Shown here piece by piece: positions 1-58,100 of a stretch of DNA of 64,000 bases. The translations under genes were made by a program, and so were the position numbers. Below the pieces are notes generated by a model. That model had not been told where the DNA came from, did no database searches, and saw only the letters and a program-made list of their open reading frames with translations. Positions within the stretch are counted from its first letter, which is position 1. Every line of letters begins with the position of its first letter. Source of the stretch: Ecdyonurus torrentis (taxonomy: Eukaryota; Arthropoda; Insecta; Ephemeroptera; Heptageniidae); assembly GCA_949318235.1 (NCBI GenBank), contig OX439132.1:5316886-5380885 (forward strand), written 5' to 3'.

Positions 1-736
1 TATTAACAAGTTAGATGACGTGCCTTATTTGCTGTGCACCAACTCTCTCCTCATCACATTTCCTAGGCAGATGCTGCTACTGCTTCAGTATAATATTATT
101 GTATGTTACTGCAAGCCCTGAGGAAGCTACGTGTTTCCACACAGTTCTCATTACATGTCCCAGTTTACTCTCTATGTTAATTAATTACGTGGTACTTTGA
201 AAATGAGAAGGGAATTTTCTTTATAAACTTTTCTACCGAGATAGTGAGATAGCGAGCGAGAGAGAGAGAGAGAGAGAGAATGTAAGAGAGAAAGGGAAGA
301 GAGTGTATGTAAGAGGGAAAGAGAGAGTATAAAGAGAAACTTTACTAGAAAAGACTCAAAATACACATGATTACAAAAGAATAAAGTTAAAGAAAAAATA
401 TATAGTTGTGACTTTAAAGTTTAGTTTTGATAATAATGGGTTTAATTACTAGAATTTAATTTTGAACTATTAAGAGGAATTAAATATTTTTTTTATCTTA
501 AATTTAAAGTAAATGTGCCAACTGGATTAACACTTTTATAAAGATTGACTTTTTAGAGTTGAGTCTAAGTTTATGTAAAGTCATTGAAAAGTTTTTAATT
601 TATTAAATAACGTTATTGTATACCTGCAAATAAAAATTCTGAACAATCTTTGTAAATCTAACTTTTGAAACTAATTAAATTTGATTGAGTATCTTATATT
701 ACTGAATGACAACATCGTCATAATATGATGATGATG

Positions 737-769
<33 letters not shown>

Positions 770-3097
770 GTAAAATGTTAAACGATGTTTTTTAATTACA
801 TGTTCGAAACTGTTTAGTTATAGAATGAGTTAAAATATTTTTAATAAAAGAGCATAATTATAAGAAATAAATTTAAATTCTATAACTTCAAGTGCCACTG
901 CACTCGAAACAAAATTTCTTTTTCTATTCCTTATAATTGATAAATTATGAGTTAGAATAAACTCTCTTAACCAACGTAATTGGGAGAAAAATTGAAAAGT
1001 AGGCAACCATTTTTTCAGTCTCTATTGTACTATGCAGTAGATAAATTATAAATAATAGCTTTAGTGAAAAATCAAATAGACAATAGGTGCAATTAAGGTA
1101 AAATATCCTGTATCTGAATCAATGCATTAAAAATAGCAAATATAGGAAAAAGTTGAAACCTTTCTTTCAATAAATTAGTACTTGAACACAAGTTTTATGT
1201 GTATTTACGACTAGAGCAACGCTTGTTGAAACTCCTGCTACAATGAACTGCCTGGGTTAATATAAATATTTATTTCTCAATGTATAAACCATGAATACCA
1301 GAAGTACCCAGAAGTAGCCTACTGTACAATTTTAAAAACCCTATTTGCAGGGGGTCTAAAGAAGCGTAAGAGACATTAAAAAGCTTATGATTAATTAGTT
1401 TGTTTTGAATACAGTAGCCCATTAAATATCTAGGCGGTATAGAAAAATCATACAATGCAAGTAAAAAAATGTATACTTTTATTTTTATTTCTAAAAATTT
1501 CAAAATAAATTTAACAAAATAATATCTTTAAAAGCACAATACTGTATTATTGTAATATGGAATAAAATCGCCTACATTTTAAAGCAATTTTACTTATTCG
1601 TTTTTTCCTCCTATTGTGAAAAACATATTACTTAAAAAAAAAAAAAAAAAAAAAAGTTATCTCCATAATATAGTCTGGCAATATAATAAAAATAGAAGTT
1701 TAGACCTCTTATTGTGTATTGTGTGGTCTGGTGGGGAAGCTGGTGGTCTGGCGTACTGAGTGGCAAAGTGCCAAGTAATCCTTCATTTAAACCAAAGTAT
1801 ATAGCCAGGAGAGGACGTGCAACTAGTTGTAGGCTGCTTTTTTCTTCTTCCCAAAAGTGATTGAACTTATAACATCAATCACAACAAACATCAATGAGTT
1901 TTTGTTATAATATATATTTTTATATTGTGTCTCATTTTATGTTTCATTTGTACGTACATAATAGGAATATAGAAATAGTTTCAAATGTCATTGCACCGAT
2001 CAGTCTACTTGGACGTTTCCACGGTATCTCAAGGCAGATGCCAGGCTTTATATTTTGGCCAATATGTGTGTCATTTCATTACACCTGTTAATAAGGCTAT
2101 GTCTTGATGGGACTTTGATAAAGGTGTAGCGTGATAAGACAATATGTGGGAGTACAAATTATGATCTGAAGAGAAATAAATGTATGTAGGTTGCTGTTAT
2201 GTTTGTGTTGAATCAACCCACATGTTTGGTTTGTGGGAACTCATAGAAATATTTCAACTTACTTATTAAGGAAGATAGGAGTTGTAATAACCATCGGAGG
2301 GGGTTGATCTAAAACATAAAATGTGCCATCACAACTTTTTTTTTTTTTTTTTTTTTTTTTGCATAAATGTAATTTAAAACTAATATAATAGATTCGTTTA
2401 AGTTGAAAAGTATAATTATACGTATTAAGTACATATTTCGTACATTACATCTATTCCATTTGCTAAGCGTGATTGAAAAAATATTTTACGCTGTTCCAAT
2501 TATAATTAGATTTGATTTAGAAAAATGGTCTCAATTCCAGAAAGAAAATAAAACTTCTTTAAACATTTTTTTTTTTTTTTTTTTTTTGCATTATTGTAGC
2601 CAAATTAAGGTTCTTTACTTAAATTCTTTCTCCATTGTTTAAAAAAGAAAAAAAGGAAAGCTCCATAAAAACTTGGATGTCACTTTGAACATTTTCAAAG
2701 TATAATCAATCAAAGTATGGAGCCTAAAATCTTGAGAATATATAATGACTAATGACTCGGTGGTAATGACGCAAACATACAATAATACTTTGCCAATGAT
2801 TTGGAATAATTAAAGCTTTTATTTTTAAATGTAGAGAATGAATAATTAAAAAACGATTTTCTTATTTTTTTATGACTATAATCATCAGTTATATTATCTA
2901 TTTTAAAATTTTCATTTTATAGAAAATGCTGTAGGTTAAAAAAAGTTATTGTAAACAAATATAGACATTGATATAGTATTCTAAATTGTTATTTGATTAC
3001 ATAATTATGAAAAAAAATTGCAGCTGCTTTAATTCTTTAATAATACGCTTTTAATAAAAAAAATTAGTTTGTGTTATTTTATCTTGCCTAGGGATAA

Positions 3098-3140
<43 letters not shown>

Positions 3141-3870
3141 GGTAACTGCGTGCTTTAATTATAATCGGAATAAAATATTAATATAATATTATAAACGATA
3201 TGATATAATAAAAAAAAACTTATCATAGGTCTTATGTAAGCAAAATATTGATCGATGATTGTAAAACAATAATGTAAAAATTTGAATATTGCGTTTATTG
3301 AGTATAATAAAACAGTTGAATGTAAAAAAAAAAAAAATAGAAAATTGATTTAAGTGTCAGTGGAGATAAAAAAATCTATTTATCTAGATTTCTCAGCCTT
3401 TTTTTTCTGATAGGGTTAGTTTAATGATATGTAATGATATGGATCGGGAGGTATTTGTAAAAATTTGTATCATTAATCAAATGAAAAGCAATACGATTTT
3501 CCATGACATATATCTATATAATATATAACTCAGTAAATAAGAAATAACATTTTGCAATACAGTACAGAAAAAATTCAATAACGAATATGAGATTTTTTAC
3601 AGGCTACAGCAATTATCAATATAGGTTGATGGTTAGACAAGATTGCGATTGGCTTTCAAACTTTATCGTCTAACGTTTTACTTCAGTCTAATATCTAATA
3701 CCACTAACTTATTGTGTTTTTTTCCGCAAAAAATAAGCCAAATAAGTATTTTTTTCAATAATCAAAGGAAATAGTGTACTTGCTCAAAAATATCATTGAT
3801 ATTTATATTGTTAGAAAAATAGTAACAAATATTACATAATAGTCCCTCAATAACAGAACCCTCATGTTAC
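1..3870. other. Non-coding A+T-rich DNA
   Basis: It holds homopolymers and a (GA)n array at 3101-3135. A small G+C-richer patch near 1719-1775 has TGGTCTGG twice, in which I recognise nothing. The short open frames here look like chance. Confidence 0.6.
242..330 (+). repeat. Purine-rich GA tract
   Basis: A short pure (GA) core (257-279) is followed by degenerate AGAGAGAAAGGGAAGAGAG sequence. Confidence 0.85.
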
Positions 3871-3873
3871 GGT

Positions 3874-3904
3874 AAAGCTATAGCTTTATAGTCTATATAT
3901 AGAC
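3874..3904. repeat. Two adjacent 14-bp palindromes
   Basis: AAAGCTATAGCTTT (3874-3887) and GTCTATATATAGAC (3891-3904) lie three bases apart, just left of the first ACGTAA-family MITE copy. Confidence 0.8.
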
Positions 3905-3920
3905 ACCAGGGATACTGCTT

Positions 3921-4110
3921 ACACGGAAAAAATAAATTACGTAATTTATGATGCATTTATGTAATTATAGCATAAATTATGCTAAATTAGAAACGAATAA
4001 ATAGCTATGCTCTACGACATAATATTTATGCTATGTATAATAGTTGTTATAAAGTATAGCATATATTATGCTGTATTAATCATTTTTTGCTGAAAATGGG
4101 CTAATATTGC
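3921..4110 (+). mobile_element. ACGTAA-ended MITE family, copy 1
   Basis: It begins ACACGGAAAAAATAAATTAC and ends near TGCTGAAAATGGGCTAATAT. The middle is full of ATTATGCT and AGCATAAT words that can form hairpins. Related copies lie at 6371-6568, 17885-18050, 30579-30763, 39012-39160 and 40105-40290. The family is short, A+T-rich and non-coding. Confidence 0.6.
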
Positions 4111-6370
4111 TTTTGTTTGTTCGTGAGAAAAAGCAGAAAACTTTGAATTTGTTTCAAGTTATTCAAATCAAAACATAAAAATATTTGTAAAAAAAAACTA
4201 AAACTGTGCACTTTTATTTTAATTGCAAGTCTCTAACATTTTAAGCCCATAGGTCATCATATTTATTTCAACAATAGCTTTTTCACTGATCTGATGGTTG
4301 CACTGGTTGTGACGTATTTATCAAGATGCTACCAAAGGCTTTTAAATGACATCAAGAAATGAAAAGGTAAACTTTTGAATTCTAAAGATAAGACTCTCTA
4401 CATTTTAACTTTCAAAAAGTTTCGTTGTCTTTGTTCAAAAATAACTCTATTTGGTGTCTATTTTATCACACATGACACGTTTTCTACGTAACATAATTCA
4501 GTTTAAAAAAAATACGCCAAAGAACCTTTCGTTCATACAAAATAGCCATCCATTTTTCTTGGATCTAAAAGAAGAAATTCAATGATGGGTATGTCGTTTT
4601 TAGTTTGCTTCTCTGCTTACTTTGAAATATATCAAACTGTAGTGAATATTCAATTAGAGGTTACTTTTTGAAATACTAAACGTAGCACCGCCTAATTTAG
4701 TTTGCCAGTTTATTATTTAACATGCTAATTACTACTAATTAGTAACTGGAGTACATTTGGAAATATATGCTAGAGTTTCTAACGTTGTTGCAATTATTAA
4801 GTTATAATATTCTGTCATAATTTGTTATAACATTTTATATGAAAGCTTACATTATTAACTATATACTAAGTTGAATTGGTTGCAATTATAATTAACATGA
4901 AATACTCTGACAAGGAAATGTTGTTCAAAGTCAGGAGACCATGTAAGTTGCTTTCTACCTTTTCTGGCCTCTAAATGAAATTAGTTCTTATTATTTTAAA
5001 ATTATAATCAAGGTTGAATAAAAAGGAGTATCAAGCCTTAATATCGCTTTCATAAAGTTTTAATTACATAAGGGATTCAAATGTAGGTCATTTTACAGGA
5101 AAAACATATTATGTAATCGGATTTGACCATAAAAATTCTCTAAAATTTTAGTTTTTACTTTTTAAGAAGTTGAGACTTGAGAGACCGGGTTAAAAATGAA
5201 TTAACATCAATGAAAGATTTGAATTTTTTAATATATAATATGGAAGATATTAAAAATTGCATCTTGGAAATAAAATCCATCAAATGAGTTCGTTAATTTC
5301 GTATTCTTTATTGTAATCATCTGTATATTTTTTTTCTGCTGAAATTTAATTATTTGATTTTAATTATAAATAATCAACGAAGCTGATTTTCTTTATAGAA
5401 TTCTCATCTTACTATATTTACAAAACAATACCTTCTCACATTATAATATAAACTCAATTATAAAACATATAATAAAATAAAAACATCCTTTATTTTAATT
5501 CAATTTTTAATTAAAAAAAAAAAAGGTCATAACGACGCAACAAAATTTAATTAACTTTAATACAATAACGTCATTTTAATTATTTCAACGTGCATGGACA
5601 TTGTGGAAATTAGAATAACAACAAAGAATAAAGCCTTCGTATACTGACTGGCTGCGAGTTTATTATAAAGTTAACAGAAGAATAATTTATAAAGAAATAT
5701 ATTTTGCTTTTGTTATCAAATAAAATATACAGTAGTAAAAAAACATTATAATGCACATCAGTGTATTTTGCTGCTAGCAAAATGTAAAATAATAATAATA
5801 ATAATAAAAAAGCGCAGCTTTGAAAATGTGTTGTCCGTTTCTATGGCTCACAACAATATACATCATATTTTTTTTCTTCTAGAAATCACGTTGTTATAGT
5901 TGAAAACAGAACAAAAACTCAACAAGTCAGGATGAGAAAAATAACATAAAATAATTGGCAGTGGGGTGTATAACAAAGGAATTGCGAGGGAAAGAGATTG
6001 AGAGAGAATGAGCAACATGTATTGTAAAGATTTAGTTTTTATTTTGTAACATGGATGCTCATTCACGTGTTCAAATTATTACGTATCACATACACACACA
6101 TATACACACAAGGTTTTTTTTTAATCAGATATGTCATTTCCTTTTTTAATATAAACATATTGTGTGACATGCAAAGATATAATCTATACTAATTAAACAA
6201 AAAAATGTTGTTAAAATTGTGACAGTAAAATTATGTCATTTGTAGCATGCAAATTTATATGAAAAAAACATACTAAATGTGTTTTTATAAATTATTTTAT
6301 GTGAAGTAAAAAAAAAAACGTATTATTTTTTATTTAACTGAACTCTCGGACAAAAAATAAATATACGTAA
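4111..6370. other. Non-coding A+T-rich DNA
   Basis: I see nothing beyond short AAT repeats near 5788-5807 and CA repeats near 6090-6110. Confidence 0.6.
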
Positions 6371-26760: not shown

Positions 26761-27425
26761 TATTTTTGCCAGTCATATCTCGAGATTTGTTTATAATAAA
26801 ACAATATTGCTATGTATTTTTATTTATTCATTAAATTAACATTACTGTACAACAAAGTTGCGTAAACATCAACATAGTTAGCTCAAGCTTATATTTTTCT
26901 CCGTGTTCAATACACGATTATTTATTATTTTTATATCATTTTCTTTATGCCGGTAAATGTACAAACAAGTAATATAAATTTAAAAATAAACTATAAATTC
27001 TTAGACGTACATAATTCTATAGAAATAACGCCACACCCGCATTTTGTTATATCATTAAAAACAAAGAACAATAACATTTAAGTAAAGAAATGTAACTATA
27101 AAGTTCTTTATTTTAATTATAAAACTAAAATAGAAAATAATAACTTTTCTTTATACATTTTATACATTACATGTATTTTATATAATTTTTATTTTTTTTT
27201 ATTATTTTTTTTGTGAAAAAAAAATATTAAAAATTAAAATAAGCACTTAAAGTTTATTATAATGTTTAATATGAAATATTTATTTTTTAATATTTAAACA
27301 GACGACGAGACATTTTATAATTTGTCTACATTAATAAAATATTATTTTTATGTAGAGTACTTAAATTAAATTATCTGATTCACAAGATAATGAGCAACAA
27401 TAAAAAAAAAAGAAAAAGAAAAAAA

Positions 27426-28020
27426 GAAAAGAAAAGAAAAGAAAAGAAAAGAAAAGAAAAGAAAAGAAAAGAAAAGAAAAGAAAAGAAAAGAAAAGAAAA
27501 GAAAAGAAAAGAAAAGAAAAGAAAAGAAAAGAAAAGAAAAGAAAAGAAAAGAAAAGAAAAGAAAAGAAAAGAAAAGAAAAGAAAAGAAAAGAAAAGAAAA
27601 GAAAAGAAAAGAAAAGAAAAGAAAAGAAAAGAAAAGAAAAGAAAAGAAAAGAAAAGAAAAGAAAAGAAAAGAAAAGAAAAGAAAAGAAAAGAAAAGAAAA
27701 GAAAAGAAAAGAAAAGAAAAGAAAAGAAAAGAAAAGAAAAGAAAAGAAAAGAAAAGAAAAGAAAAGAAAAGAAAAGAAAAGAAAAGAAAAGAAAAGAAAA
27801 GAAAAGAAAAGAAAAGAAAAGAAAAGAAAAGAAAAGAAAAGAAAAGAAAAGAAAAGAAAAGAAAAGAAAAGAAAAGAAAAGAAAAGAAAAGAAAAGAAAA
27901 GAAAAGAAAAGAAAAGAAAAGAAAAGAAAAGAAAAGAAAAGAAAAGAAAAGAAAAGAAAAGAAAAGAAAAGAAAAGAAAAGAAAAGAAAAGAAAAGAAAA
28001 GAAAAGAAAAGAAAAGAAAA
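27426..28020 (+). repeat. 595-bp perfect (GAAAA)119 array
   Basis: One hundred and nineteen uninterrupted five-base units are preceded by an impure A/AG lead-in (27400-27425). An open frame across it (27390-28205) translates as KKRKE repeats plus serine-leucine repeats and is not a gene. A perfect array of this size implies recent expansion. Confidence 0.95.
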
Positions 28021-50015: not shown

Positions 50016-54083
<4,068 letters not shown>

Positions 54084-54097
54084 CATATTCTAAAAGT

Positions 54098-54331
54098 GGA
54101 CATAGTCCTAAATCGATTGTTACGTGAATTTCTAATTCTTGAGTTAATTAAGTATTTTTAACCAGTTTTCCAAAATCGAAAGATTATTTCACGGGCAGCA
54201 ACTTATGGAATTGGGCATAGGAAAACGTTGTCACCCGTGACGTCATTTTATGACTTTCAAATTTCAAATAAAAATACTTAAATGAACTAAAAATTACCAG
54301 CTCGTAAATTTATCGATTTAGGACAATGTTC
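54098..54331. mobile_element. 234-bp hairpin MITE next to a T run
   Basis: GGACATAGTCCTAAATCGAT on the left mirrors ATCGATTTAGGACAATGTTC on the right. Weaker pairing continues inward through AATTAAGTATTTTTA and TAAAAATACTTAAATG. The centre holds TGACGTCA (54238-54245). A 31-base T run (54053-54083) lies just outside the left end. Confidence 0.6.
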
Positions 54332-55246
54332 TCTGTTAGAATATAAAATAAAATGACATGCTAATTTTTTAGTATTCCTCATTTTTATCTTCCAGTGTTA
54401 ATATATTTCACAGTGTACTGCTGCACTTCACTTCAAGAGTATCGAAGTTCTCAGAACTAATCCGTATCTTCTTATACTTTAACATATAGAGTACTTATAT
54501 ATAAAAGTAAATATGTGACACACAAACTATTATATAATGATACAAGTTTACTCTGACAACGTCCTCAATATTAAAGTAAACTCAAAACGTGACTAGATTT
54601 AAACATCTAACATTTTCTTTTTAAAAAAGTATCGGTCGTCTTATATTTTATACTGAAGTAAATGGTGAGCTATATTTTTTTTTGTTTTTTTACTTATATA
54701 TCTAATACTTATATCTTATTTGTGTGTATGGTTTAAGTGTTGTGGTAGAATGTTGTTAACAGTATTAAGTTGCACTTAAAGTTTAATATTGATATGGAAT
54801 TTTTTTTTCATAGTGTCAATATTGTTAGTAAAATAAACAAGTTAAGCTGGAGAGGAAGAAAGACTGGAAAAAGAAAATTTAATTAAATGAATTTCTTTTC
54901 ATTAATTTATAACTCAAATATAATTATATATAATATCAAATATTTGTACCATAAAATTGAATTTGAAGTTAATTTGATTTGAAGTAAAACAATGAATTTC
55001 TTTACACGCTTCTTTACATGCTTCTTTTAAAGTTATGATATATTATCATCTGTGTAGAAACATCACAGAATTTTCAGTTCTTAAGATTCAAATAAGTGAG
55101 ATTGTTTTAGTAGAGGGAACAAGAGGAACTTTTCGGGAAAAGGTGGTAAGAGCATGAATTTTTCAGGGTTCGTAGATATGGTCATTAGTAGCTCTTTCCC
55201 TAAATTTCAACGCATGGGCCACGTAGGGTCGTCAGATATTGACCTC

Positions 55247-55260
55247 TGAACTTTGACCCC
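55247..55260 (-). promoter_or_regulatory. HNF4/DR1-like site in left arm (mirrored at 57520-57533)
   Basis: On the minus strand this reads GGGGTCAAAGTTCA, a close fit to the direct-repeat-1 sites bound by HNF4/RXR-type nuclear receptors. The same site appears on the plus strand at 57520-57533 because of the palindrome. Function is untested. Confidence 0.35.
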
Positions 55261-55760
55261 TTATTCCACAGTTTTTAATTTTTTATAGCGTTCCTGATCA
55301 TCTTTTCACAAAAAGTTTAAGAACAAAATATATTTTAAATAATTATTTCTACGTGTGAAAAAATTTTCAAAAGTGTGACGTCACAAATACTAAGATGGCG
55401 GCCAAATTTTCAAAATTGCCCTAATTATTGGTGCTAATTATTTATTCAACATCTTCTCATTAGCCCAAAAATAATAATTTTGATTATATTTGATGTATAA
55501 TGTACTGAGGAACATGATAAATTTTATTTGAAAGAAATCGGACAATTTGGGTGGAAGATATTAATTTTTTTTCGAAAAAGCTGTATGCCCAGCAATGGTG
55601 CCTATGCTATAACCATAGGGAAAACAGCAGAATTCAAACTGTTGTAACTTTTTATCAAGTTGATGTATGGGTTTGATTTTTTCAGGGAGCATAGATAATC
55701 AAGAGATATTTAATAGAGCCATTATTTTTTAATTCAAATTTGTATAGGGTGACTATGTTA

Positions 55761-55773
55761 TGACCTTTGACCT
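55761..55773 (-). promoter_or_regulatory. Perfect DR1 motif (mirrored at 57007-57019)
   Basis: The minus strand reads AGGTCAAAGGTCA, two nuclear-receptor half-sites separated by one base. It is mirrored exactly in the right arm. The motif identity is seen directly, and binding is inference. Confidence 0.35.
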
Positions 55774-55906
55774 TGCACCTTAGAGGGATGTTATTTTAAT
55801 GATTGCGAGCACTAATTTAGCCCGCGAGAACAACTTTTAAGGACAAAAATGTTAGATTTGACTAAATCAATCGATAAAAATTATGGAGGAGTAATTAAGT
55901 TTCCTC

Positions 55907-55915
55907 TGACCTTGA
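55907..55915 (-). promoter_or_regulatory. Extended half-site TCAAGGTCA (mirrored at 56865-56873)
   Basis: TCAAGGTCA is the extended monomer site used by the NR5A/FTZ-F1 and ERR nuclear receptor families. It occurs once per arm. Confidence 0.35.
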
Positions 55916-56009
55916 CATATTTGGAGAACTTGGTGCTCAAATTTGCTATTTTTTAAGAATTCCAAAGCATTAAAATCGAGCTTAAATGAAAAAAAAAAAA
56001 GAAGCGATT

Positions 56010-56050
56010 GGATCATATCTGTAGCCCCGTAAATCAGTCCGCATACCCAC
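56010..56050 (+). repeat. Direct repeat unit inside the palindrome (copy at 56381)
   Basis: GATCATATCTGTAGCCCCGT followed by AAATCAGTCC in the left arm is repeated as a close variant at 56381-56412 in the central loop region (GATCATATCGGTAGCCCCGT then AAATAAGCCC), and in reverse complement near 56730-56770. The loop therefore seems to derive from arm sequence. This suggests the palindrome was assembled by duplication of an internal segment. Confidence 0.6.
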
Positions 56051-58100
56051 ACCACCCAGCAACCCCCAGCGCTACCCCCCCCCCCCTCCCAAAAAAAATT
56101 AAAGGAAACGTTGTAAACTGCAAACATAAAACATGCGCATAATATATTAATTTATAAAGTAATATTTTTTTATAACTTCATTTTGGCCTCCCCCATCCCC
56201 CATCTTAAAACCACAATTATATTTTAATTTGGGGGGGGGGGGGGACATTTTAAAAAAATATACAGAAAACAGAATTAAAAATTTACTACATGTATAGTGT
56301 ATACAATTAATTATGCATGCATGTCCAAAGTTTACATTTTTTCGGGGGCGGGGGGGATTGAAAATATTTAATTCTGTTAGATCATATCGGTAGCCCCGTA
56401 AATAAGCCCACTTCCCCCTTCCCTTAAAAAAATGTAAATCTTTAACATATACTTATGCCTTATGCATAATTAAATTAAGTTTATACACATATAATACATT
56501 TTGATTTCTGTTTTCTGTATATTTTTTTAACATGTCCCCCCCCCCCCCCCAAATTAAAATATAATTGTGGTTTTAAGATGGTGGATGGGGGAGGCCAAAA
56601 TGAAGTTATAAAAAAATATTACTTTATAAATTAATATATTATGCGCATGTTTTATGTTTGCAGTTTACAACGTTTCCTTTAATTTTTTTTTGGGGGGGGG
56701 GGGTAGCGCTGGGGGTTGCTGGGTGGTGTGGGTATGCGGACTGATTTACGGGGCTACAGATATGATCCAATCGCTTCTTTTTTTTTTTTTTCATTTAAGC
56801 TCGATTTTAATGCTTTGGAATTCTTAAAAAATAGCAAATTTGAGCACCAAGTTCTCCAAATATGTCAAGGTCAGAGGAAACTTAATTACTCCTCCATAAT
56901 TTTTATCGATTGATTTAGTCAAATCTAACATTTTTGTCCTTAAAAGTTGTTCTCGCGGGCTAAATTAGTGCTCGCAATCATTAAAATAACATCCCTCTAA
57001 GGTGCAAGGTCAAAGGTCATAACATAGTCACCCTATACAAATTTGAATTAAAAAATAATGGCTCTATTAAATATCTCTTGATTATCTATGCTCCCTGAAA
57101 AAATCAAACCCATACATCAACTTGATAAAAAGTTACAACAGTTTGAATTCTGCTGTTTTCCCTATGGTTATAGCATAGGCACCATTGCTGGGCATACAGC
57201 TTTTTCGAAAAAAAATTAATATCTTCCACCCAAATTGTCCGATTTCTTTCAAATAAAATTTATCATGTTCCTCAGTACATTATACATCAAATATAATCAA
57301 AATTATTATTTTTGGGCTAATGAGAAGATGTTGAATAAATAATTAGCACCAATAATTAGGGCAATTTTGAAAATTTGGCCGCCATCTTAGTATTTGTGAC
57401 GTCACACTTTTGAAAATTTTTTCACACGTAGAAATAATTATTTAAAATATATTCTGTTCTTAAACTTTTTGTGAAAAGATGATCAGGAACGCTATAAAAA
57501 ATTAAAAACTGTGGAATAAGGGGTCAAAGTTCAGAGGTCAATATCTGACGACCCTACGTGGCCCATGCGTTGAAATTTAGGGAAAGAGCTACTAATGACC
57601 ATATCTACGAACCCTGAAAAATTCATGTTCTTACCACCTTTTCCCGAAAACCCCTTAAAAATACCTCTTGATCCCCCTTTTATTTATATACTTTTATGTA
57701 CTTTTTAGGAAACTCAGATATCATATTTGAACAAATTAAAGCTATCTAACTCGCATACTGCGTATGCAAGTTTCCTGACTTCATTCATTTGACTGTCTAA
57801 TTTAGTTATTTTCATATTGTTACAGCATAATATAATGCAATCAAGTCTTTATAATAAGAAAATACTTGTTTCAAGATAAAAGTAAACATCGTTGACAAAA
57901 GTAAACAAAAGTCGTAATATTTAATACAGATAATGAACACAATACTCTGATGATAATGTTACATGAAATAACAGAGAAAACTTTTGGAATATCTTTTGAA
58001 AATTGCAGTTGAAAAGTGTACCCAGTACTTTTATTTTTCCTTCCTTATGCTCTTACAGATAAGAGGGTTATATAAAAAAAGACAAAGAAACAGCCACGCC

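What the first reader, a model, noticed from the sequence alone, without database searches (positions are those of the whole stretch)
55114..57679. A 2.57-kb palindrome with about 1.2-kb, nearly identical arms
Reading both strands, the left and right halves match as reverse complements around 56390 with very few differences over about 1.1 kb per arm. A transcript through it would fold into about 1.2 kb of double-stranded RNA. Such RNA is a possible source of hairpin-derived small RNAs, for which hpRNA loci in insects are the known parallel. The bounded ends with different flanking DNA argue for a mobile foldback element. It could be an undescribed family.
Basis: partly seen in the sequence, partly recalled or inferred. 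Interest (0 to 1): 0.75.

Follow-up and report, generated by a model that had tools for sequence, protein, structure and literature searches.

The report
Palindromic jumping DNA in a mayfly
A 2.6-kb stretch of mayfly DNA that reads nearly the same on both strands is one of about 40 copies of a mobile element without genes of its own, and its two mirror-image halves keep copying and swapping with each other, so the hairpin stays nearly perfect as the family changes.

Summary
The palindrome is real: window 55108-57682 (2575 bp), arms 98.6% identical around a 143-bp core. It is one of at least 40 loci of one family. The genome matches the HiFi assembly of the mayfly Ecdyonurus torrentis in span and chromosome lengths. 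Of 33 copies with both ends, 31 have perfect 3-bp target-site duplications, and flanks are unrelated. So it is a mobile foldback element, not an artefact. It has no long reading frame; its transposase was not found.

The notable part is how it evolves. The ends differ (TAGTAGAGGGAAC / TAGCAGGGGGATC), but the arms change together. Subfamilies A and C differ at 45 unambiguous columns in both arms, and at none in one arm alone apart from 7 near the centre. 87 substitutions private to one element are in both its arms, 129 in one; 0.5 both-arm coincidences expected. The core lies in either orientation, 19 versus 12, with at least 7 switches on a weakly resolved tree. Recurrent arm-to-arm conversion and crossover explains this.

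The hairpin-RNA idea is untested. Kolobok, CACTA and Mutator membership fail. New foldback variant, superfamily unassigned.

The parts
55105..55107 (.). target-site duplication TTT, left
   Evidence: identical TTT on the right; 3-bp TSDs identical in 31 of 33 copies with both ends, against a mean of 3.0 and a maximum of 9 in 1000 shuffles of the flanks
55108..57682 (+). palindromic non-autonomous transposon copy (2575 bp)
   Evidence: ends defined by TSD and by homology that stops at the same place in other copies; longest stop-to-stop frame 101 aa
55108..55129 (+). L-type terminus TAGTAGAGGGAACAAGAGGAAC
   Evidence: the 14 columns of arm difference shared by subfamilies A and C all lie in the first 32 alignment columns
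55108..56318 (+). left arm
   Evidence: 98.6% identical to the right arm
56319..56461 (+). core, found in either orientation in other copies
   Evidence: 19 forward and 12 inverted among 31 full-length copies with distinct ends
56462..57682 (-). right arm
57651..57682 (-). R-type terminus (family form TAGCAGGGGGATCAAGAGG(C/T)ATTTTTAAGGGG; in this copy the first bases read TAAAAGG)
57683..57685 (.). target-site duplication TTT, right
56008..56048 (+). 41-nt motif of the left arm, repeated 83% alike in the core (56377-56417) and inverted in the right arm (56730-56770)
   Evidence: families D4 and I7

Best explanation
This is one copy of a non-autonomous foldback DNA transposon family of a heptageniid mayfly. 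A transposase supplied elsewhere (not identified) is inferred to recognise the short, slightly different L and R termini and to move the element by cut-and-paste or copy-and-paste, making 3-bp duplications at AT-rich targets. Because the arms are 1.2-kb inverted repeats of each other, they recombine with each other: non-crossover conversion keeps the arms nearly identical as the family diverges, and crossover flips the central core. Shown: ends, TSDs, copy number, concerted change of the arms, two core orientations. Inferred: the transposase type, and that the homogenising step is inter-arm gene conversion rather than template switching during transposition or gap repair.
For: At least 40 loci (fetched), 33 with both ends, 31 of 33 with perfect 3-bp TSDs (shuffle maximum 9 of 33). 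66 flanks of 300 bp compared with each other show only 3 short matches, none placed like a duplicated flank. Concerted arms: subfamilies A and C differ at 32 substitution and 13 indel columns in both arms, at 0 in one arm only apart from 7 columns near the centre; 124 ambiguous columns were set aside. Private substitutions: 87 in both arms of one element, 129 in one arm, 0.53 both-arm coincidences expected; with gap-adjacent columns masked, 65 and 68. On the arm tree the own two arms form an exclusive pair in 13 of 32 elements, and the left/right label changes at least 26 times. Core orientation 19/12, in all three subfamilies, at least 7 changes. L024 has R-type ends on both sides with a perfect TSD.
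Against: No transposase gene with these termini was found, so the mobilising enzyme is unknown. The tree that gives the 7 flips is weakly resolved (9 of 28 inner branches starred). In 19 of 32 elements the own two arms are not an exclusive pair on the arm tree. 129 of 216 private substitutions are in one arm only, so homogenisation is incomplete. Conversion in place after insertion was not separated from copying between arms during transposition. L040, which I counted in subfamily C, falls outside the C clade on both trees, so the subfamily labels are rough.
Confidence: 0.87

Rival explanations
1. Assembly or library foldback artefact: the second arm is a false copy of the first.
For: Palindromes are a known class of amplification and assembly error (general knowledge).
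Against: 33 two-ended copies with unrelated flanks and 31 perfect TSDs; arms differ from each other at fixed terminal sites; the matching assembly was made by Hifiasm from 67-fold HiFi reads. Reads were not examined.
Confidence: 0.01
2. The palindrome was made afresh from a single arm in each subfamily (template switching during transposition or replication), so identity reflects repeated formation rather than conversion between standing arms.
For: Would also give concerted arms, and elements such as L024 with two R ends.
Against: The same L/R terminal differences are present in subfamilies A, B and C, and the core is shared in both orientations: the palindrome predates the subfamilies. Private both-arm changes occur beside single-arm ones in many of the same elements. 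Template switching confined to the arm interior cannot be told from conversion.
Confidence: 0.25
3. The element is kept because its transcript makes long dsRNA that the insect RNAi pathway processes (hpRNA-like), for host regulation or for silencing the parent transposon.
For: Predicted hairpin of 1229 pairs, -2072 kcal/mol for a full transcript; the host is an insect.
Against: No evidence of a transcript (none was available to test); dispersed mobile copies with TSDs are explained without a host function; nearly perfect pairing follows from arm recombination alone.
Confidence: 0.12
4. It is a derivative of a KolobokD transposon (Mutator-like domain PF20700 plus DnaQ exonuclease): a diverged R-type terminus lies about 3.3 kb from such a transposase exon on contig C39.
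For: C39 R-type terminus followed by PF20700 exons reading inward from it; about ten PF20700 loci in the genome, by my grouping of the 20 exon matches. The R-type end also contains TTAA followed by GGGG, as in C39 TTAA followed by AGGG, which could be a buried Kolobok end or chance.
Against: A related copy in the same genome (L056) has a TTAA target repeat and a 16/16 terminal repeat beginning GGGGG; Kolobok makes TTAA duplications with 5'-RR termini (passages of PMC9587614). The foldback's own duplications are 3 bp outside ends that start with TA. The two C39 loci are one duplicated event (1297 of 1298 aligned bases alike, flank included), and C39 also holds other transposon pieces. I did not find the exonuclease part on C39.
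Confidence: 0.08

Closest known systems
Galileo (P superfamily, Drosophila)
   Same: Long, nearly identical TIRs (765/757 bp at 99%, 1575/1608 bp at 97.5%), many copies reduced to two TIRs; a foreign insert in one TIR can pass to the other (passages of PMC4168063)
   Different: 7- or 8-bp TSD with consensus GTATTAC; variable TIR lengths; here 3-bp TSD, and 31 of 32 full-length copies are 2.51-2.58 kb (the other 2.74 kb)
Tm1, Mutator/Foldback family (root-knot nematodes)
   Same: Foldback shape, asymmetric short motifs at the two ends, members without coding potential (passages of PMC3169594)
   Different: TIRs built of tandem repeats of about 14 bp, two TIRs on average 93.15% identical, 9-bp TSD
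Tetris (Drosophila virilis foldback)
   Same: Non-autonomous foldback with two TIRs, a middle domain and no transposase found (passages of PMC4079207)
   Different: 8-10-bp TSDs, internal tandem repeats of about 220 bp
hpRNA loci of insects
   Same: A long inverted repeat that would make one dsRNA hairpin
   Different: hpRNAs are expressed host loci (recalled); these are dispersed mobile copies, expression unknown

Membership tests
Foldback-type (long-TIR, non-autonomous) DNA transposon | Two long terminal inverted repeats with little between them | tested here: met
   32 full-length copies, arm identity 96.7-98.9%
Foldback-type (long-TIR, non-autonomous) DNA transposon | Mobile unit with fixed-length target-site duplication | tested here: met
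   31 of 33 identical 3-bp TSDs
Foldback-type (long-TIR, non-autonomous) DNA transposon | Arms made of internal tandem repeats, as in Tm1 and Tetris | tested here: not met
   Tandem Repeats Finder on the window copy lists only four runs of 15-21 bases. Not universal: in the D. willistoni survey tandem repeats were in a single Galileo copy (passages)
Mutator/MULE (home of many foldbacks) | TSD of about 8-10 bp | tested here: not met
   TSD 3 bp; identity at 4 to 10 bp in 0 of 33
Kolobok / KolobokD | TTAA TSD, 5'-RR...YY-3' termini | tested here: not met
   TSDs TAT, TAA, ATA, TAC and 11 other triplets; termini TAG...CTA; definition from passages of PMC9587614
CACTA/EnSpm | 3-bp TSD | tested here: met
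   definition from passages of PMC12730594
CACTA/EnSpm | 5'-CAC...GTG-3' termini | tested here: not met
   termini TAGTAGAGGG / TAGCAGGGGG; definition from passages of PMC12730594
PIF/Harbinger | 3-bp TSD, TWA-like (target preference recalled) | tested here: inconclusive
   middle base A or T in 31 of 31, first base T in 21 of 31, last base free; transposase search did not complete
Zator | 3-bp TSD | tested here: met
   Zator TSD from passages of PMC10045372
Zator | Zator/ISAzo13-like transposase in the genome | tested here: inconclusive
   PF07592 found nothing, but nothing rang in the control genomes either; that this Pfam family covers Zator is recalled
hpRNA locus | expressed hairpin giving Dicer-dependent 21-22-nt siRNAs | not testable with these tools
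   no RNA data

The most novel reading that the evidence does not exclude
The nearly perfect palindrome is produced by the transposition cycle itself: a lineage of transposases with 3-bp (H-W-N) duplications, not yet tied to a superfamily, moves the element through a hairpin intermediate in which one arm templates the other, so each jump re-copies the arms and can flip the core while the asymmetric ends are protected.
Probability: 0.12. Interest if true: 0.75.

Novelty: new variant of a known kind. Interest (0 to 1): 0.42.

Why it matters
It gives a natural series for measuring recombination between closely spaced inverted repeats in an animal: 32 full-length copies of one palindrome with countable conversion and flip events, asymmetric end markers, and a fall of conversion toward the hairpin centre. 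It also shows how a transposon can stay a nearly perfect dsRNA-coding hairpin without selection for the hairpin, which bears on how hairpin RNA loci could arise in insects.

Tried and rejected
Artefact: rejected (TSDs, many loci, unrelated flanks). Mollusc host: my first guess from base composition and size, wrong; mitochondrial COX1 showed a mayfly. A TA dinucleotide as TSD (my first reading): replaced by 3 bp once the two sides were set in register. An earlier count said that arms pair in most elements; the tree shows 13 of 32. Autonomous partner: the terminal pattern gave 66 exact sites, of which 64 lie in the 40 known loci, and 102 with up to 2 mismatches against 12 in the reversed control (listing capped). 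The sites outside the known copies that I opened (L049-L053, L055) were relics with 59 to about 280 bp of terminal homology. In L049, L050, L052 and L053 I looked only at open-frame lists (L052 and L053 are 3-kb pieces), not at family searches, and saw no transposase-like frame; the C39 neighbourhood holds a KolobokD-like gene, judged probably unrelated. The eight 1-mismatch sites listed were all opened; of the 2-mismatch sites none but the window's own. Zator search uninformative. Harbinger and CACTA transposase searches and the search with the diverged terminus of L050 did not complete. Rfam and tRNA scans of the window: nothing. Chromosome bias: 11 of 40 loci on C26, whose length matches the longest scaffold in the paper (presumably the X), 4.8 expected, P 0.006 before correcting for 11 chromosomes; suggestive only.

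Full report
Observation. The palindrome is present and slightly larger than stated. The ungapped search finds arms 55130-56000 / 56780-57650 (871 nt) and further pairs inward. Gapped self-alignment shows 0 or 1 mismatch per 100 bases from 55208 to 56207, 6 mismatches and 10 gap positions in the outermost 100, and decay in the last 200 bases before the centre. Over about 1.2 kb the arms are 98.6% identical. A transcript of the whole element is predicted to form 1229 base pairs at -2072 kcal/mol.

Host. The window lies at G000:C11:5316886-5380885 in a 503,193,034-base genome of 117 contigs. Contig C117 carries mitochondrial COX1 (translated); its best match is Epeorus pellucidus, 99%, and the next five hits are also named mayflies (that some of these genera are mayflies is recalled). 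The published Ecdyonurus torrentis assembly (503.2 Mb; abstract in the listing and passages) has chromosomes of 58.27, 54.23, 53.52, 50.41, 49.0, 40.19 and 34.41 Mb, a longest scaffold of 60.6 Mb and a 15.69-kb mitogenome. These match the contig lengths seen here. The paper counts 121 scaffolds, this copy has 117. It was assembled by Hifiasm from 67-fold HiFi reads, which makes false 2.6-kb palindromes at dozens of sites implausible.

Family and ends. The left half gives 76 matches, with 40 of 85 first-look candidates scored, so counts are lower bounds. I grouped these into 40 loci and fetched all 40. 33 have both ends and 7 are partial. The left end begins TAGTAGAGGGAACAAGAGGAAC; the right end, read inward, TAGCAGGGGGATCAAGAGGCATTTTTAAGGGG. 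Among 66 flanks of 300 bp only 3 short matches were found, between two pairs of copies and away from the insertion point, so copies are separate insertions. The 3 bases outside the two ends are identical in 31 of 33; shuffling flanks among copies gives a mean of 3.0 and at most 9 of 33 in 1000 trials. The exceptions are L027 and L044. The duplicated triplet is AT-rich: the middle base is A or T in 31 of 31 and the first base is T in 21 of 31. In the window copy the TSD is TTT and the element is 55108-57682. No frame exceeds 101 aa, so this copy is non-autonomous. Two pairs of copies are identical at every aligned arm base, small indels aside (L010/L011, L034/L036), which indicates recent movement.

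Concerted evolution of the arms. I used the 32 full-length copies (L044, 1518 bp, left out). Subfamilies were set by eye from identity to the window copy. Comparing consensus arms of subfamilies A (10 copies) and C (16 copies), 32 substitution columns and 13 indel columns changed in both arms together. 14 columns keep an old left/right difference, all within the first 32 columns. 7 columns differ between A arms only, all near the centre. 124 columns were ambiguous. L040, counted in C, falls outside the C clade on both trees. Among single elements, 87 substitutions private to one element occur in both its arms and 129 in one arm; independent mutation predicts 0.53 both-arm coincidences. With columns near gaps masked the numbers are 65 and 68. 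The both-arm share is 60 of 102 in window positions 55130-55929 and 5 of 31 farther in (Fisher P 2.8e-5). Within the outer part the first 200 bases are lower (8 of 26). So homogenisation is strongest in mid-arm and fades toward the hairpin centre, and perhaps toward the ends. On a tree of 64 arms the left/right label changes at least 26 times, and 13 of 32 elements have their own arms as an exclusive pair; in the other 19 the two arms are not an exclusive pair, as expected where near-identical copies share arm-specific differences.

Core flipping. The 143-bp core lies forward in 19 and inverted in 12 of the 31 full-length copies with distinct ends, in all three subfamilies; the 32nd, L024, has R-type ends on both sides. 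On an element tree orientation changes at least 7 times, but that tree is weakly resolved (9 of 28 inner branches starred). Crossover between the arms produces exactly such inversions, and non-crossover events produce the conversion above. L024 and the mixed terminus of L025 look like conversions that reached an end. That the L/R end difference otherwise persists suggests either that conversion seldom reaches the last 30 bases or that transposition needs unlike ends; I cannot separate these.

Centre. The core region is itself an imperfect palindrome (81% then 70% pairing) and contains a third copy of a 41-nt arm motif. The simplest history is a palindrome that once paired to its centre and whose centre decays because it escapes conversion (inference). 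The arms hold no tandem array.

What moves it. The terminal pattern occurs exactly at 66 places, 64 of them in the 40 known loci, and at 102 with up to two mismatches, against 12 in the reversed-pattern control. The extra sites opened were short terminal relics; their insides were judged from open-frame lists only, apart from C39. One, on contig C39 (duplicated as a block), lies about 3.3 kb from a transposase exon with the Pfam Mutator domain PF20700. Relatives of that gene on C12 also carry an adjacent frame with a DnaQ-type exonuclease domain (RNase_T), the combination described as KolobokD (passages of PMC9587614). A C12 copy of that group has the TTAA target repeat and a 16/16 terminal repeat starting GGGGG. 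The foldback's ends and duplications are different, so I do not file it under Kolobok. The R-type end does contain TTAAGGGG some 25-30 bases inside (TTAAAGGG in C39), so a buried Kolobok end is not excluded; I think a nested or chance association more likely. Superfamilies with 3-bp duplications named in passages that I saw are Zator, canonical Harbinger and EnSpm. EnSpm termini (CAC...GTG) do not match. The other two remain open.

Comparison. Galileo, Tm1 and Tetris work alike as foldback elements (passages), but all have 7-10-bp duplications. In the passages seen, transfer of an insert from one TIR to the other is inferred in Galileo, so arm exchange as such is not new. The countable concerted change along the arms and the repeatedly flipped core are what this family adds. 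My paper searches (19 of 19 papers listed, 15 of 80, 7 of 7, 8 of 41) listed no paper that, by title and start of abstract, describes this family; the lists were partly capped and no repeat library was searched, so novelty is not proved.

Hairpin RNA.

Noticed in passing
L056 (G000:C12:27104500-27111500), element about 364-6130: A KolobokD-type transposon (PF20700 transposase frames plus a DnaQ-type exonuclease frame) with a TTAA target repeat and 16/16 terminal repeats GGGGGTGGGGGACCGA.
   Followed up: partly
L051/L054 (G000:C39:163200-173000): A KolobokD-like gene 3.3 kb from a foldback terminus, followed by a reverse-transcriptase-like frame (by eye) and a weak MULE-domain match (below Pfam's cut-off); the start of this block is repeated 253 kb away almost without change.
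   Followed up: partly
window 27403-28020: A 618-base array of AAAAG, 124 copies at 99% (frames read KEKKR).
   Followed up: partly
window 55375-55403 and mirror in the right arm: The arm contains GTGACGTCACAAATACTAAGATGGCGGCC, resembling CRE plus YY1 sites (recalled motifs), and TGACCTTTGACC-like half-sites; possible promoter-like content (read).
   Followed up: no
40 family loci by chromosome: 11 of 40 loci lie on C26 (presumably the X), expected 4.8, and 6 on C20, expected 2.3; none on C12, expected 3.2; weak after correction.
   Followed up: partly
window 54076-54117 / 54312-54353: Another small inverted repeat (42 nt, 86%, 194 nt apart) about 1 kb left of the palindrome.
   Followed up: no
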